A stretch of 64,000 nt of DNA from a virus. The first letter of the stretch is position 1; each line of letters opens with the position of its first letter. This document shows positions 57,321 through 64,000 of the stretch, in pieces. The notes below the pieces were generated by a model. That model did no database searches. It was not told where the DNA came from and was given only the letters and a program-made list of their open reading frames with translations. The translations under genes and the position numbers were made by a program. The stretch spans positions 1 through 64,000 of the IMG/VR virus record IMGVR_UViG_3300034063_001922; one strand, 5' to 3'.

Positions 57321-57660
57321 TCAGCCCGCTCCCACCAGCTGCTGGCGCAGTGCGGACAGGGCCTTCTTCTGGGCCCGCTGCACGGCCATCGGGCTGATCT
57401 GCAGCTGCGGCGCGGCGGCCCGTAGGGACAGCCCCTCGAGGATGGTGAGCCGCAGCGCCGTGGCCTGCACGGCGGGTAGTCGCTCGAACAGCTGCTCCTT
57501 GGCACACTCGATTGAGGGAGGACACCAGCAAAGGTTCGAATGCGGAAGTCGCCAGCTGATCCAGCAGGGAGTTGTCACCAGTTGCGGAAGCGTCGTAGTG
57601 ACAAGTTCGACACCGCAGGAACCCGACTCGTGCACACTGTGCAAGTTGCACACGGCGGAG
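57321..57660 (-). pseudogene. Sigma-70 region-4-like protein, frameshifted
   Basis: The C-terminal part AKEQLFERLPAVQATALRLT, ILEGLSLRAAAPQLQISPMA and VQRAQKKALSALRQQL is a clear sigma factor region 4 (helix-turn-helix with SPMAVQRAQKKAL as recognition helix). The preceding sequence in the same frame has poor protein character, while the other frame reads NSLLDQLATSAFEPLLVSSL before the junction near 57515. So the gene looks broken by a frameshift, or starts at a weak codon. It may once have acted with the region-2-like protein at 33701. Confidence 0.5.
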
Positions 57661-57776
57661 GCAATTGCAGCAGCCGATAAATAATTCCACCAAGACTGCA
57701 AAGCAAGATAGTCCATGTTGCAATGGTTAAGTTGACTTGCAAGCCGAAAAGGGGGGCAGCCTATGCCAGTTCCCAC

Positions 57777-58862
57777 TCAACCCTGCTTGATGAGCACAAC
57801 TGGATGAGCGCGAGGATAGGGAAAACCTGGGAAGCACGAAAAACTGACACGGTCACCCTCGGACGGCATTGGACCATACACACTTTGTCGGTGGAAAAAG
57901 ACAACGCCTCCACCGTCCTGACTGATAAAGCCAGTGTTCCCAGGGGGTCTAATGGCTGAGCAGGTCCCTTCAAGTCTTTCGTCAACCGAATAACAGAGAG
58001 CTTCACAACGAACCGCTAATTGCTTCGCTGACGGCCTGGCAGCTGGGTCTTTACTAAGGCAGGCGACGAGAAGCTGGTGGACTTCATCTGCTAATGTCTT
58101 AAACTGAGTTTTGCCAGTAAACAAATCCGAAGGTACCTGTAGCTCAGCTTGAAGGATTCTTGGCACGGCTGTCAATCCAACTCCAAACGGAGGTTCGCCC
58201 ACCAAGAGCTCATAGGTCATTGCGCCAACAGCCCATACATCGGAAGGCTTGTCGGCATTGCGTGGATCGGTAATCATTTCGGGAGCCATATAAGGAAGCG
58301 CTCCTACAACAGTCTTTGATGCAGAGATTGACGCCTCACCACCCTCCACAGCTTCCGCGATTTCATCACCAGCCATTTTGGCGATGCCAAAATCTGTAAT
58401 TTTAATTTCTCTTATACCTGCCCCACCCGTGAACATTACATTGCTTGGCTTCAAATCACGGTGAATAACTCCAGCTCTATGCGATGCATCGAGCCCTTTG
58501 GCTGTGTGGTGCATGGCTTTCGCTACAAGTGCTGGGTCAACAGCCGTCAGGCGATCCAGCAAGCCTTGTTTTATATCTGTGCCAGCGATAAACTCCTCCA
58601 CAAGATACTGAGAATCATTGACCTCAATGTAATCAAGTGTTTTGGCTACATTGGGGTGGTTGACTTTTGCGCTAACAACAGCACTTCTCTGAAAACGCTT
58701 CTGAGCAGACCTGTTTTTCGGAACTTTAAGTGCTACCTCCTTCTGCAAATGCAAATCGAGTGCAAGATAGACCTCCTGCATGCCTCCTTCGCCTGCAAAT
58801 GACTGAACCATATAGCGCGAGTTGATCTCGTCACCCTGAGCATGTATTTGGTGCCCACTCAT
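57777..58862 (-). CDS. Ser/Thr protein kinase with C-terminal cold-shock-like domain
   Basis: 361 aa, ATG at 58862 overlapping the stop of the upstream kinase (ATGA). Kinase: GEGGMQEVY loop, VALKVP (Lys), GVIHRDLKPSNVMF, KITDFGIAKM, YMAPEM and SDVWAVGAMTYELLVGEPPFG. From about residue 297 a domain of ~65 residues follows: GTCSAIRPPGNTGFISQDGGG, VVFFHRQSVYG, EGDRVSFSCFPG. It aligns with cold-shock proteins (RNP-1-like GFI, RNP-2-like VFFH, EGxxVSF). The kinase-CSD fusion suggests nucleic-acid-sensing or RNA-directed phosphorylation (inference). AT-richer than the phage genes. Confidence 0.82.
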   Translation of the reverse strand: MSGHQIHAQGDEINSRYMVQSFAGEGGMQEVYLALDLHLQKEVALKVPKNRSAQKRFQRSAVVSAKVNHPNVAKTLDYIEVNDSQYLVEEFIAGTDIKQGLLDRLTAVDPALVAKAMHHTAKGLDASHRAGVIHRDLKPSNVMFTGGAGIREIKITDFGIAKMAGDEIAEAVEGGEASISASKTVVGALPYMAPEMITDPRNADKPSDVWAVGAMTYELLVGEPPFGVGLTAVPRILQAELQVPSDLFTGKTQFKTLADEVHQLLVACLSKDPAARPSAKQLAVRCEALCYSVDERLEGTCSAIRPPGNTGFISQDGGGVVFFHRQSVYGPMPSEGDRVSFSCFPGFPYPRAHPVVLIKQG

Positions 58863-59926
58863 AAGACCACCTCTGGGTTTGAGATGTCGAATGTTGCAAA
58901 GACACGTCTCTGCCCTACATCTCCAAGGGTAATGACACAGCTTTTCGGCAAGACATCACCCACCCGAGTTCGGCAGTTGTTGATCGACACTACACCCTCA
59001 AAGGCTGCAACTCGAAAAGCCAAACCGGTGTATCTGATTGTAATGGAAAGCGTACTATCTATCTGCAAAAGGGCCCCAGGCTTCTCAGAGCTCATAACAA
59101 AGATATTGCTTCCACTAACAAGCAACCCCTTGTGCTTATTCCTAAGCAACTCCGTCTGTAGCACCTGAGAAATCTCTGAGATCCTAGGGCGATCAGTTGG
59201 GCTCAGTCGTGTCGTATGATCTAGCAGGTTTACCAAAGCATCAGGAATATCAAGAGTCAGCGAAGCGAAGCTCGGAATACTATCAAGTAGTGGAGGAAAC
59301 AGCGCAAGTTCGCGGGGTATACCTTGCCCAGAAAGATGCCAGGCAAGAACCCCGAAGGCATAGACGTCGATAGCGCTTGTAAATCCCAGAGGCTGATTTT
59401 TAACCAGCTCAGGCGCTGCATAGACGAGGGTGCCTGAGAATCCAACTGTTCTATCATTGAATCCGGCAAATCGTGCTAGTCCAAAATCAATGATTTTAAC
59501 GAGTCCAGAGTCGGTGCGTTTGATGTTATCTGGCTTGATGTCTCGATGGATTATTCCTTGCTCGTGAAGGTCGGACAAGCCTGATGCTACTTGGTAGAGA
59601 ATAAGGAGGTATTCATTGACAGGCAAGGGTGATCCAGCTGGAGGAAAGTCCTGGAGATCTGGCCCTGCCACATACTCTTCAACAATGCCAATCTGCTGGT
59701 TTTCCGAGTCTACGAAGTAGTCATAGATTTGGACAACATGCTTAGATCTTAGTTTCTGCAGAGCTTTAATTTCATCTACGACCCGATGTACCTGACACGG
59801 ATCGCCGATAGACTTGACAACAACTGTGCGCTCGAGCAGGGTATCCCTGCAAACATAGATATCACTCAAGCCTCCGTGCAAGACTTCGCCCGTTGGCTGG
59901 TAGCGATCAGGTATGGATAGCATCAT
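58859..59926 (-). CDS. Ser/Thr protein kinase with C-terminal beta domain
   Basis: 355 aa, ATG at 59926, starting 8 bp after the phosphatase stop. Kinase motifs: VVVKSI (Lys), GIIHRDIKPDNI, VKIIDFGLARF, TLVYAAPELV, SAIDVYAFGVLAWHLSGQ. The last ~85 residues (GALLQIDSTLSITIRYTG, LAFRVAAFEGVVSI, TRVGDVLPKSCVITLGDVG) look like a beta-sandwich, perhaps FHA-like, that could read or dock partners. It is part of a kinase/kinase/phosphatase operon. Confidence 0.82.
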   Translation of the reverse strand: MMLSIPDRYQPTGEVLHGGLSDIYVCRDTLLERTVVVKSIGDPCQVHRVVDEIKALQKLRSKHVVQIYDYFVDSENQQIGIVEEYVAGPDLQDFPPAGSPLPVNEYLLILYQVASGLSDLHEQGIIHRDIKPDNIKRTDSGLVKIIDFGLARFAGFNDRTVGFSGTLVYAAPELVKNQPLGFTSAIDVYAFGVLAWHLSGQGIPRELALFPPLLDSIPSFASLTLDIPDALVNLLDHTTRLSPTDRPRISEISQVLQTELLRNKHKGLLVSGSNIFVMSSEKPGALLQIDSTLSITIRYTGLAFRVAAFEGVVSINNCRTRVGDVLPKSCVITLGDVGQRRVFATFDISNPEVVL

Positions 59927-59934
59927 GGTTAGAA

Positions 59935-61125
59935 CTACGATTCCGAAAGCTCTATTCGTAGTTGTGGCTCATGAAGATCCTTGATTACCGCATCTGCAAA
60001 TCTATTTTCTTTGCCGGCATCCCGGTATACCTCATGGGTGGCCTGTAAGCTATCACTCCCTTCATTTGATTGGGCTGTTTCCAAGATCGCTCCAGCCTTT
60101 CTGGCTGCTGGAGGCTTCCGACGTCGTTGTCGATTAGGCTCTGGCTCCTTACCTCGAAACATTGAAGAGCTAGCCTCTTGTCTTGATGTAATTTCGAACT
60201 TTCCTGAAAGACCCCATACCTCTAAAAAGCCTCTTTCGACTGGGCTAAGCCCTAAAAAGACTCCAGTAGTGATGTCCCAAGCTGCAACAGTTGCATTATC
60301 TCTGCCGCCCTTCCATTCAGATAAGACAGTCAACCTGCGTGCGATTTCCCTGGACGAACCTGCACTTACAACAATTTCCTTGAATAGTTGCTGGTCGATT
60401 TCGTGGGCACCATCAGAGGTCAGGAATAGGCAGTGATACAGATCAGTGTCAGAGACTGGGATACCATGAACCTGGATCCCTTTGCCCATCCCTACATACT
60501 GAAGTAATTCCCTGAACTGAGCCGGTGGAGTTGGAACTTCCATGCCAGATAGAATATTTCCAAGGCTATCATCTGTAGAGATCTGCTTAATATCTCCACT
60601 CTTTAAAAATCCATAAACCCTGCTATCGCCAACATTTACACATGCCCAGTCGCCGTTGCTGGTGGATCCAATTGCGGATAAGGTCGCGCCTCCTCTGCCA
60701 GAGAAATGGCTAAAGACTTCTTCGTTAGCGGCTTCGGTTGCGTTGCGAAGTTGATCAACCAGAGAATCTGACTTTGCTGCAGAGAATGCGGCAACAAAGG
60801 AGCTAATTGCTAACTCTGCTGCTGTAGCACCTTCCCTCATTCCACCCATGCCATCACAAAGGACTAGGGCCGTTGTCATGGGCCATCCATCCCGCTGAGG
60901 TATCAGCCGAAGGAAAGCGGCTCTATCCTGATTCTCATCCCTCTTGCCGATTGTGCTGGAGAAAGTAACTGATCCTTCTTCTACAGATGAAAAGCCTGTA
61001 TTCCTTCCACGATGAATCCAGCGAAGGACAGCCTTCCGAACATCTTCTTGGAAGGACCCAGCAGGAGCCACCTCGGGTGTGCCAACGTACCCAGCGATCC
61101 TAGCTGTCCTTGGCCTGGCCTGCAC
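59935..61125 (-). CDS. PP2C-family protein phosphatase
   Basis: 396 aa, GTG at 61125. PP2C metal-binding and catalytic motifs are present: RDENQDRAAF, LVLCDGMGG, NVGDSRVYGF, LTSDGAHEID, GGRDNATVAAW. The N-terminal ~50 residues and a basic, disordered C-terminal tail (RQRRRKPPAARKAG) flank the domain; the tail may be a kinase substrate. Reverses phosphorylation by the two kinases that follow in the same operon. Confidence 0.85.
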   Translation of the reverse strand: MQARPRTARIAGYVGTPEVAPAGSFQEDVRKAVLRWIHRGRNTGFSSVEEGSVTFSSTIGKRDENQDRAAFLRLIPQRDGWPMTTALVLCDGMGGMREGATAAELAISSFVAAFSAAKSDSLVDQLRNATEAANEEVFSHFSGRGGATLSAIGSTSNGDWACVNVGDSRVYGFLKSGDIKQISTDDSLGNILSGMEVPTPPAQFRELLQYVGMGKGIQVHGIPVSDTDLYHCLFLTSDGAHEIDQQLFKEIVVSAGSSREIARRLTVLSEWKGGRDNATVAAWDITTGVFLGLSPVERGFLEVWGLSGKFEITSRQEASSSMFRGKEPEPNRQRRRKPPAARKAGAILETAQSNEGSDSLQATHEVYRDAGKENRFADAVIKDLHEPQLRIELSES

Positions 61126-61215
61126 TTATGTTATCTCTCTGGATGCATAGAGGATCCTTCCCACTGCCGCCAGTTCTTCGGAGTTAGTCAAATTTACATC
61201 TGAGGCACAGGTGAT

Positions 61216-61851
61216 TTACAGAATCTCAAAGCGAAAGCTACTTGCCTCGCGAAGCCGAAGATCATGCAGCCACAAACCGTGACCACCATTAAAGGAAATC
61301 ATCGGCTCAAGCTCATCAGACACAGAAGGGGGAGTGATTTCACCCAAAGCGCTGGGAAGCAGTCCGGTTCTGACCAGTCGCTCTGACATGATCGAAGAAG
61401 ATATTTTAGAGATGTCTAAAGAGATTCTCCACTCATCTTCTTGCTGAAGATTTCCATGGTCGGGACCTCCCGGCAGTCTCATCGCTCGTCCTAAGCGAAA
61501 TGGAAGGGCCTCGCTAGACGCAGAGAGATCGGCATAGTCAATTTTTCCATATGCGTACCTGACAGCCTGAGGATTCCAGTCATCGCGAAGGCTGCCATCA
61601 GGGTGCTTCATCTCATGCTCACCGGGCTGCTGTTGGTTCCATCGATTAAAGCATTCTTGAAGACAGCTGACCAAATCGGCTTCAGAAATCTGGAGAAGGA
61701 CTCGATCGTGCAATGGCTGAGCAAACTCAAGAGCTGCTGCTCTCGAATGTGACCAACTGCAAATATAAGCCAGTCCGCTGTACAGCCTTTCGGCGCTCTC
61801 AAAGAACTTCTTGCACCTCTGGTCTTCGTGAATTGGGCATTCTCCTCCAAT
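61216..61851 (-). CDS. Unknown protein upstream of the PP2C gene
   Basis: From the TTG at 61713 it has 165 aa, but the same frame stays open to about 61860 with protein-like sequence (ECPIHEDQRCKKFFESAERL, YSGLAYICSWSHSRAAALEF), so the true start may be the ATT at 61851 or another rare codon. C-terminal part: DEWRISLDISKISSSIMSER, GHGLWLHDLRLREASSFRFE, similar to a small beta sandwich. The 90-bp gap to PP2C suggests one operon. Not a vWA domain as far as I can see. A candidate sensor/partner of the kinase module. Confidence 0.45.
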   Translation of the reverse strand: MGGECPIHEDQRCKKFFESAERLYSGLAYICSWSHSRAAALEFAQPLHDRVLLQISEADLVSCLQECFNRWNQQQPGEHEMKHPDGSLRDDWNPQAVRYAYGKIDYADLSASSEALPFRLGRAMRLPGGPDHGNLQQEDEWRISLDISKISSSIMSERLVRTGLLPSALGEITPPSVSDELEPMISFNGGHGLWLHDLRLREASSFRFEIL

Positions 61852-62090
61852 CCCTAATTGCTAAAGTTCGTTCCTCTGCTCATCTCTTGTCTTGAGCATC
61901 TCGCTTTCCTGGGTGTCGTCGTCGTGAATAAATGCTCTTTAAAAGTGTATCCTATTAAGCTCGAGATCGCGCTCTGCTAGGGATTTGGTCGCCCCACGAT
62001 ATAGAAAAGCCTCCGATGATGCCTGGCTGCACTGCTTGCGACTGAGACACTCCTTGAATCGATACAGCATGATGCTCGGTGAAATAGTGT
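61852..62090. other. Intergenic region between unknown protein and SNF2 helicase
   Basis: 239 bp, AT-rich, with no supported gene. It should hold the promoter of the leftward kinase operon and the 3' region of the helicase gene that ends at 62091. No clear terminator was identified. Confidence 0.35.
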
Positions 62091-64000
62091 TTATAGGCCT
62101 TTGAGTGCATCCTCATAAGTCGCTCGATCGGGAGGGCATTCGATGGAAAAAGCTTGGCACTCCCTCATGGGAAACAACGGACTCCCCGGCACCCAAAGCT
62201 CACAGCTATCACTGTTGTCCTCGTAGTAGGAAGCGTTGCAGGTGACGCGCATTTCCTTGTCGAGACCTGGTTGGGTCCAGGCGAAGTCGTAGGCGCCAAT
62301 CGCGCGGGCGCTGCAACCGGGTGGCAGCAAGGCCGGCTGCCTGAGAATGGCTTCCAGATCAGACAGGGTGAGCGGCGGGGGCTGCAGGGTGTTCACCACA
62401 TCACGGATGGCATCGAGATCCTGGAGGACGTCATCAAGGTCCAGGCCCTTGATCTCGGGCTCCTGCTGCACAGCAGCCACCGCAGATGCCCGCGCCTTTT
62501 CCCGCTGATCACGGCTGACGAGGGTGGCCTGGGAGATGGAGCTGGATGCCTTGGCAAGGATCGGCTGCAGCTTGCCCACCACCTGCTCGAACATCGCGAT
62601 CCGGCCCTTCAACGCCCGGTACACATCAGCCTCCACGGTGCCATCGAGGTGCAGGTTGATGATCTGCATCTGCTCGTGGGTCTGGCCGATGCGGTCGATT
62701 CGGCCGATGCGCTGCTCTACTCGCATCGGGTTCCAGGGCATGTCGTAGTTGATCAGGGCTCCGCAGAACTGGAAGTTCAGGCCTTCAGCCGCGGCATCGG
62801 TGCAGAGCAGGATCTCGGCCTTGCCTTCCTTGAATCCGCGTTTGGTGGCCTCGCGGTTCAGCGCCTTCCACACCCCGCCCTTCTGGAGGATCTCGCCACC
62901 GCGACCGGTGAAGGCCATCAGGCTGGTGCGCCCTGCGCCGATCAGCAGCGCCTTGAGGGCATCAACCGTGTCGGTGTACTGGGAGAAGACGATCACCTGC
63001 TTGTAGCCCTGGGCCTGCAACTGCTCGATGGCCTTGAGGAACTCGGATCCCTTGCTGTCGTGGCCGACCAGGGGCCTGGCCTGATCGAGGAGCACCCCGA
63101 TGGCATCGAGCTCGATCTGCAGCGAGGCCTCCTGGAAGGCGCTCTGCATGCCCTCCAGATCAAGGGTGAGTTCACCCGTGATGTCGTCGTCTTCGCTGGC
63201 GGCGGCGTCTTCCTCCAGCTGTTGCTGCTGGCCGGCCATCCGTTTCTCCAGGGTGGAGACCAGTGCAGCCACACTGCTGGCCAGCCGGCGGCGGTAGATC
63301 GTCATCACGAAGCCCACAGCCGACTTCTTCTGGCCGGTTGCCTGGGAGTACTGGGTGGAGATGAAGTCCTCCACGGCGTCGTAGAGCGCCCGCTCCTGCG
63401 GGGTGCTCTCCAGGAAGCGGTCGTCCACATGGCGGGTGCCGATGGCTAGATCCATTGATCCCTGCTGCTTGTAGGCCCGCAGCAGGTTGCGGCTGTGGCG
63501 CGAGATCAAACCCTGCACCGGGGTCCAGCGTTTGGCCAGGGCCAGCGAGGCCTGGCGGATCTCGATGCTGAGATTGCGGCGGGAGAGGGGATCGGTGTCG
63601 TTCAGGGCCCGTAGGGCCTTGCGTTTGCGCAGCGGCGATTTCCGCAGATCTTCCGGCATGGCGTTGCCCGGGGCCTCGCCAAACGCGGTCACGCTGCTGC
63701 GCCACAACCCTGCTAGGTACGAAAGGGTGGCCTCATCCGGGTTCTCCTTCTCCACCCACTCGAAGAAGCGCTCGAAGGCGTCTTCGGTCCACTCGGGTGG
63801 CATGCCCAGCAGGGCGAGCAGGTCCCACACCTCCAGCTCGCTCACCTGCATCGGTGTGGCGGTGAGCAGCAGCAGTCCGTTGGTGCGCTGGCGCAGCTGC
63901 TGCATGAGCTGCATCAGGGTGTTGGGGCGGAGGCGCTCACCGCCGCTGCTGCTGTTCTCCCGACGGGTGCGGGCATGGTGGGCTTCATCGAGCACCACCA
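62091..64000 (-). CDS. SNF2/RapA-like helicase, C-terminal part
   Basis: Partial: runs off the right edge, with at least 635 codons here. Motif II appears as VLDEAHHARTR, motif III as LLLTATPMQ; the second RecA lobe has VIVFSQYTDTVDAL, LCTDAAAEGLNFQF, DMPWNPMRVEQRIGRIDRIG, then a C-terminal tail. This is a Swi2/Snf2 double-strand DNA translocase of the RapA/DISARM-DrmD/BREX-like kind. Large helical insertions (residues about 215-300) sit between lobes. GC-rich like the host, unlike the kinase genes next to it. Candidate defence-island member; the N-terminus and neighbours are outside the window. Confidence 0.85.
   Translation of the reverse strand, partial: VVLDEAHHARTRRENSSSGGERLRPNTLMQLMQQLRQRTNGLLLLTATPMQVSELEVWDLLALLGMPPEWTEDAFERFFEWVEKENPDEATLSYLAGLWRSSVTAFGEAPGNAMPEDLRKSPLRKRKALRALNDTDPLSRRNLSIEIRQASLALAKRWTPVQGLISRHSRNLLRAYKQQGSMDLAIGTRHVDDRFLESTPQERALYDAVEDFISTQYSQATGQKKSAVGFVMTIYRRRLASSVAALVSTLEKRMAGQQQQLEEDAAASEDDDITGELTLDLEGMQSAFQEASLQIELDAIGVLLDQARPLVGHDSKGSEFLKAIEQLQAQGYKQVIVFSQYTDTVDALKALLIGAGRTSLMAFTGRGGEILQKGGVWKALNREATKRGFKEGKAEILLCTDAAAEGLNFQFCGALINYDMPWNPMRVEQRIGRIDRIGQTHEQMQIINLHLDGTVEADVYRALKGRIAMFEQVVGKLQPILAKASSSISQATLVSRDQREKARASAVAAVQQEPEIKGLDLDDVLQDLDAIRDVVNTLQPPPLTLSDLEAILRQPALLPPGCSARAIGAYDFAWTQPGLDKEMRVTCNASYYEDNSDSCELWVPGSPLFPMRECQAFSIECPPDRATYEDALKGL

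What the first reader, a model, noticed from the sequence alone, without database searches (positions are those of the whole stretch)
57777..61851. Kinase-kinase-PP2C operon with a kinase/cold-shock fusion
A Hanks-type kinase ends in a domain that aligns with cold-shock proteins (GFI, VFFH and EGxxVSF positions kept), an architecture I do not know as a described family. It is translationally coupled to a second kinase and next to a PP2C, a possible reversible phosphorylation switch that senses RNA or ssDNA. Adjacent to a prophage and an SNF2 helicase, it could be part of a defence island.
Basis: partly seen in the sequence, partly recalled or inferred. Interest (0 to 1): 0.8.

Follow-up and report, generated by a model that had tools for sequence, protein, structure and literature searches.

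The report
Cyanobacterial kinase-kinase-phosphatase (KKP) phage-defence module
Three neighbouring genes, a phosphatase and two protein kinases, one of which ends in a cold-shock (nucleic-acid-binding type) domain, form a member of the already described KKP anti-phage toxin-antitoxin system, here sitting next to a BREX-related defence system and a prophage in a cyanobacterium.

Summary
On the minus strand lie a PP2C phosphatase (61125-59935), a Ser/Thr kinase (59926-58859) and, overlapping it by ATGA, a second kinase (58862-57777) whose last ~65 residues are a genuine cold-shock domain. The claim that the architecture is undescribed is wrong. It is the KKP module (PfpC-PfkB-PfkA; Guo et al. 2024, PMC11341870), a tripartite phosphorylation toxin-antitoxin with tested anti-phage activity. 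Gene order, gene lengths, kinase and phosphatase motifs and the CSD 'GFI' motif match, and full-length homologues occur in about 50 genomes, nearly always as the same triad. The CSD is supported by a profile match to CspB (E=3e-8), Pfam CSD hits in 24 of 49 members, and an AlphaFold five-strand barrel. One published label is not supported: 0 of 45 PfkB-like proteins match the FHA profile. The 'SNF2 helicase' belongs to a separate DUF499/Hma (BREX-related) system. In all picocyanobacterial loci found, KKP lies beside some BREX-superfamily system (DUF499/BR, BREX-3 or BREX-1). This is suggestive but rests on few loci. The ORF between helicase and PP2C is a pseudogene. Verdict: a new member of a known kind.

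The parts
57777..58862 (-). kinase B = PfkA-like: Ser/Thr kinase (GGM, K46, HRD, DFG intact) with C-terminal cold-shock domain (about residues 296-359; GFI and VFFH kept)
   Evidence: 48 aligned relatives, 41-95% identity
58859..59926 (-). kinase A = PfkB-like: Ser/Thr kinase (HRD, DFG intact; GGL in place of GGM) with a ~90-residue all-beta C-terminal domain ending in [SN]xPEVVL
   Evidence: FHA profile not matched
59935..61125 (-). PfpC-like PP2C phosphatase, GTG start, motifs RDENQD, DGMGG, GDSR, DN intact
61216..62090 (-). decayed gene between helicase and PP2C (two in-frame stops); intact as a 294-aa ORF in L084; not part of KKP
62091..64000 (-). C-terminal part of a 1070-aa PLD/HKD-SNF2 helicase that continues past the window (to record position 65303); neighbour system, not part of KKP

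Best explanation
This is a KKP (kinase-kinase-phosphatase) module. As in the tested members, the two kinases probably act together: kinase A (PfkB-like) and kinase B (PfkA-like) bind each other through their kinase and C-terminal domains, activate by phosphorylation, and when unchecked phosphorylate many host proteins and stop growth. The PP2C keeps them dephosphorylated. Phage infection that inhibits the phosphatase would release the kinases and abort infection. The module may also tune the neighbouring prophage. Shown here: gene content, order, intact catalytic motifs, CSD fold, family-wide conservation. Inferred from Guo et al. 2024: toxicity, antitoxin role, defence, prophage control. The trigger and the substrates in this cyanobacterium are unknown.
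For: Same triad, order and strand in 49 of 56 homologous loci, with five of the seven exceptions at contig ends. Full-length PfkA-like homologues in cyanobacteria, proteobacteria, Verrucomicrobia and others. Kinase B is 50% and kinase A 40% identical to the kinase pair of an E. coli PP2C-kinase-kinase cluster that lies next to a phage portal gene. PfkA-like proteins form one clade apart from other kinases, and the window protein sits in a cyanobacterial subclade. CSD supported. Published definition and function.
Against: None of the experimentally tested KKP sequences (MPAO1 Pf6, Shewanella W3-18-1, V. tasmaniensis, E. coli 15EC039, S. Typhi CT18) was compared directly: none turned up in the searches made here. 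The published FHA label of PfkB is not recovered by sequence here. No functional data for a cyanobacterial KKP were found.
Confidence: 0.93

Rival explanations
1. KKP here is an auxiliary part of the adjacent BREX-related (DUF499/Hma) system: phosphorylation by the kinases gates it, or KKP is its back-up suicide module.
For: Helicase, decayed ORF, PP2C and kinases lie on one strand in three loci (window, L004, L084). The other picocyanobacterial KKPs lie beside BREX-3 (L034) and BREX-1 (L045). BREX-2 has its own kinase PglW (PMC12839542).
Against: No BREX or BR homologue within the fetched flanks (up to 10 kb) of the other ~50 KKP loci. Cyanobacterial loci L005-L008 show no BREX genes among the large neighbours scanned. 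The three BR loci are close relatives, and the partner system differs between loci, as expected for a shared insertion hotspot.
Confidence: 0.1
2. KKP is a prophage gene set whose main role is control of the neighbouring or a co-resident prophage, as for Pf4/Pf6 (a question of role; compatible with KKP membership).
For: A prophage (portal, major head, tail fibre, endolysin) lies directly downstream. L084 shows phage-gene homology downstream too. Over 90% of published KKPs are in prophages.
Against: L004 has KKP plus the BR genes with no match to this prophage downstream; what follows is a D5-type primase gene and a LexA-type gene. In the window KKP is closely flanked by defence genes. Prophage borders were not determined.
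Confidence: 0.35
3. A generic housekeeping signalling operon unrelated to mobile elements.
For: PP2C and Hanks kinases are common in bacteria (general knowledge).
Against: Very sporadic: 2 of 399 genomes of the order; changing neighbours; presence on plasmids and phages.
Confidence: 0.03

Closest known systems
KKP module PfpC-PfkB-PfkA of Pf6 and other prophages (Guo et al. 2024, Nat Commun 15:7244, PMC11341870)
   Same: Gene order phosphatase-kinase-kinase, sizes, kinase and phosphatase motifs, CSD with GFI on the last kinase, mobile-element and defence neighbourhood; cyanobacterial members already mentioned in the paper
   Different: Cyanobacterial sequence; kinase A has GGL in place of GGM; beside a DUF499/Hma system; kinase A C-terminal domain does not match FHA profiles
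DUF499-centred BREX-related (BR / Hma) system (PMC12839542)
   Same: The neighbouring genes: DUF499 ATPase (HmaC model 2e-101), DUF1156 N6-methylase, PLD(HKD)-helicase fusion as in Type-2 BR
   Different: It is the neighbour, not the finding; a DUF7680 protein stands where Type-2 BR has DUF3780
Stk2 kinase defence of Staphylococcus (as described in PMC11341870)
   Same: Ser/Thr kinase based phage defence
   Different: Single kinase locus, no phosphatase antitoxin

Membership tests
KKP | Three adjacent co-oriented genes in the order PP2C, kinase, kinase, each 900-1300 bp | tested here: met
   1191, 1068 and 1086 bp, same strand; order conserved in 49 of 56 loci
KKP | Last kinase (PfkA) ends in a cold-shock domain with GFI/GFA motif | tested here: met
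   NTGFIS...VFFH in window; CspB match E=3e-8; 24/49 Pfam CSD; AlphaFold barrel
KKP | Middle kinase (PfkB) ends in an FHA domain (PF00498) | tested here: inconclusive
   A conserved ~90-residue beta domain is there, but 0/45 match PF00498 at E<=0.1, and hhalign to 24 true FHA domains gives 6% against 99.8% for the control; the E. coli KKP kinase also lacks the hit. Whole-model fold search listed only kinases
KKP | Both kinases with GGM, HRD, DFG motifs | tested here: met
   kinase B GGM/HRD/DFG; kinase A GGL/HRD/DFG, so GGM is altered in kinase A only
KKP | PP2C with intact catalytic motifs | tested here: met
   RDENQD, DGMGG, GDSR, DN; invariant or nearly invariant columns in 43 sequences
KKP | Kinase pair toxic, phosphatase neutralises, phage protection | not testable with these tools
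   needs experiments
KKP | Direct homology to an experimentally tested member | not tested
   tested sequences did not turn up in the searches made; an untested E. coli cluster gave 50%/40% identity
BREX-related (BR) system | KKP genes are part of it (constant co-occurrence) | tested here: not met
   no BR or BREX homologue near ~50 other KKP loci

The most novel reading that the evidence does not exclude
In picocyanobacteria KKP is a regular partner of BREX-superfamily systems (DUF499/BR, BREX-3, BREX-1), acting as their back-up abortive-infection arm or phospho-regulator; and the PfkB C-terminal domain is a new beta domain rather than a working FHA.
Probability: 0.15. Interest if true: 0.5.

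Novelty: new member of a known kind. Interest (0 to 1): 0.2.

Why it matters
It corrects a 'new architecture' call to a known, tested defence module. It adds a well-marked cyanobacterial branch, and points out two testable loose ends: the FHA label of PfkB lacks sequence support across the family, and picocyanobacterial KKPs keep landing next to different BREX-type systems.

Tried and rejected
TerY-P triad and MADS/PD-T4-6 kinases: the PADLOC matches cover only the kinase domain and look generic to Hanks kinases; TerY was considered from memory and not searched for as such. Pfam on the single window kinase gave no CSD hit, so the family profile was needed. The FHA assignment was tested four ways (Pfam on members, PDB profile search, hhalign with positive control, whole-model Foldseek) without support; Foldseek on the whole chain only returns kinases, and the first hhalign attempt had part of the FHA domains on the wrong strand and was redone. 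A constant helicase-KKP system was rejected. Promoter and terminator scan gave nothing above shuffles. tRNA scan of the window found none.

Full report
What is there. The window is part of a 76,044-base IMG/VR record. On the minus strand, read 5' to 3', lie a PP2C (61125-59935, GTG start, 396 aa), a Ser/Thr kinase A (59926-58859, 355 aa) and a Ser/Thr kinase B (58862-57777, 361 aa). The PP2C and kinase A are 8 bases apart. Kinases A and B overlap by four bases, ATGA. All catalytic motifs are present: kinase B has GGM, HRD and DFG, kinase A has HRD and DFG with GGL in place of GGM, and the PP2C has RDENQD, DGMGG, GDSR and DN. Their key residues are invariant or nearly so in the family alignments.

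The cold-shock domain. The single window protein gives no Pfam CSD hit, only a weak S1-like match. The family settles it. 24 of 49 members hit PF00313 (best 2e-7), and a profile of the last ~73 residues of 31 members finds cold-shock protein CspB in the PDB at E=3.3e-8 over the whole domain. AlphaFold puts five strands there (296-305, 310-315, 320-324, 338-344, 351-358) with pLDDT about 92-96. The C-terminus is present in essentially all full-length homologues. Some nucleic-acid-contact positions of classical CSDs, judged from general knowledge of CspB, differ in the window protein, so RNA or ssDNA binding is plausible but unproven.

The family. A scan of 84,980 genomes gave about 50 full-length homologues of kinase B (40-81% identity) in cyanobacteria, proteobacteria, Verrucomicrobia and others, plus four viral contigs. 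PP2C, kinase A and kinase B occur in that order on one strand in 49 of 56 loci. Of the seven exceptions five lie at contig ends, and L021 and L051 look degraded. Other neighbours are not conserved. In the order that holds Aphanothece minutissima only 2 of 399 genomes carry it, so it is a sporadic, apparently mobile module. PfkA-like proteins form one clade against other kinases, and the window protein nests in a cyanobacterial subclade.

Identity. Guo et al. 2024 (PMC11341870) describe precisely this triad as KKP: phosphatase PfpC, PfkB, and PfkA with a CSD bearing GFI/GFA, in over 1200 clusters including cyanobacteria. The two kinases together are toxic and phosphorylate many host proteins, PfpC neutralises them, modules from several sources protect against phages, and T4 Gp59 inhibits PfpC. 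The window module meets the defining features that could be tested, except that the FHA label stays open. The experimentally tested sequences were not compared here; an E. coli PP2C-kinase-kinase cluster beside a phage portal gene shows 50% (kinase B) and 40% (kinase A) identity.

A point against the published description. PfkB is said to carry an FHA domain (PF00498). None of 45 PfkB-like proteins matches PF00498 at E<=0.1, nor does the E. coli one. The FHA profile search of four KKP-bearing genomes found 24 FHA domains, none of them at the KKP kinases. Profile-profile comparison with those 24 gave 6% probability over 26 columns, against 99.8% for a split-half control. The PDB profile search found no FHA. 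The domain is an all-beta ~90-residue unit with invariant Y, NN, G and PE. It may still be a derived FHA fold, since only the whole chain was modelled and the fold search was swamped by kinases.

Surroundings. Upstream, running past the window, are a PLD/HKD-SNF2 helicase, a DUF1156 N6-methylase, a DUF7680 protein and a DUF499 ATPase (HmaC model 2e-101). This matches the DUF499-centred BREX-related (Hma) systems of PMC12839542, of the HKD-helicase type but with DUF7680 in the place of DUF3780. Between helicase and PP2C is a decayed gene with two in-frame stops; a relative (L084) has it intact. Downstream is a prophage (portal, head, tail fibre, endolysin). The same BR-KKP arrangement occurs in L004 and L084. 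In Synechococcus HJ21-Hayes two KKP copies lie beside BREX-3 (L034) and BREX-1 (L045), and share with the window record a Rad52/Gp157 flank. This looks like a recombination hotspot for defence genes. KKP loci elsewhere lack BREX homologues in the fetched flanks, so a working partnership is not shown.

Verdict. This is a KKP module, ordinary as a kind, with two modest leads (PfkB domain, BREX neighbourhood). The confidences given to the rival on prophage control concern the role of the module, not its identity.

Noticed in passing
window 61216-62090 (minus): Pseudogene with two in-frame stops; the intact relative in L084 (4749-5630) has LYRG and SWSxSxxAxxFA motifs that by eye resemble an ADP-ribosyltransferase; no Pfam hit.
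   Followed up: partly
L003 5092-14867 (record positions 62091-71866): DUF499/Hma-type BREX-related system with a DUF7680 protein in the usual DUF3780 slot and a PLD-SNF2 helicase.
   Followed up: partly
L034 15657-21079 and L045 12323-21079: KKP copies of one Synechococcus genome lie next to BREX-3 and BREX-1 systems respectively, sharing a Rad52/Gp157 flank with the window record.
   Followed up: partly
window 57321-57776 (minus): Small ORF with sigma-70 region 4-like HTH directly downstream of kinase B; a 148-base stretch is also similar in L084.
   Followed up: no
L090 3084-4517 and L008 6113-7528: An additional kinase gene lies just upstream of the KKP triad in some loci (divergent in L090).
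   Followed up: no
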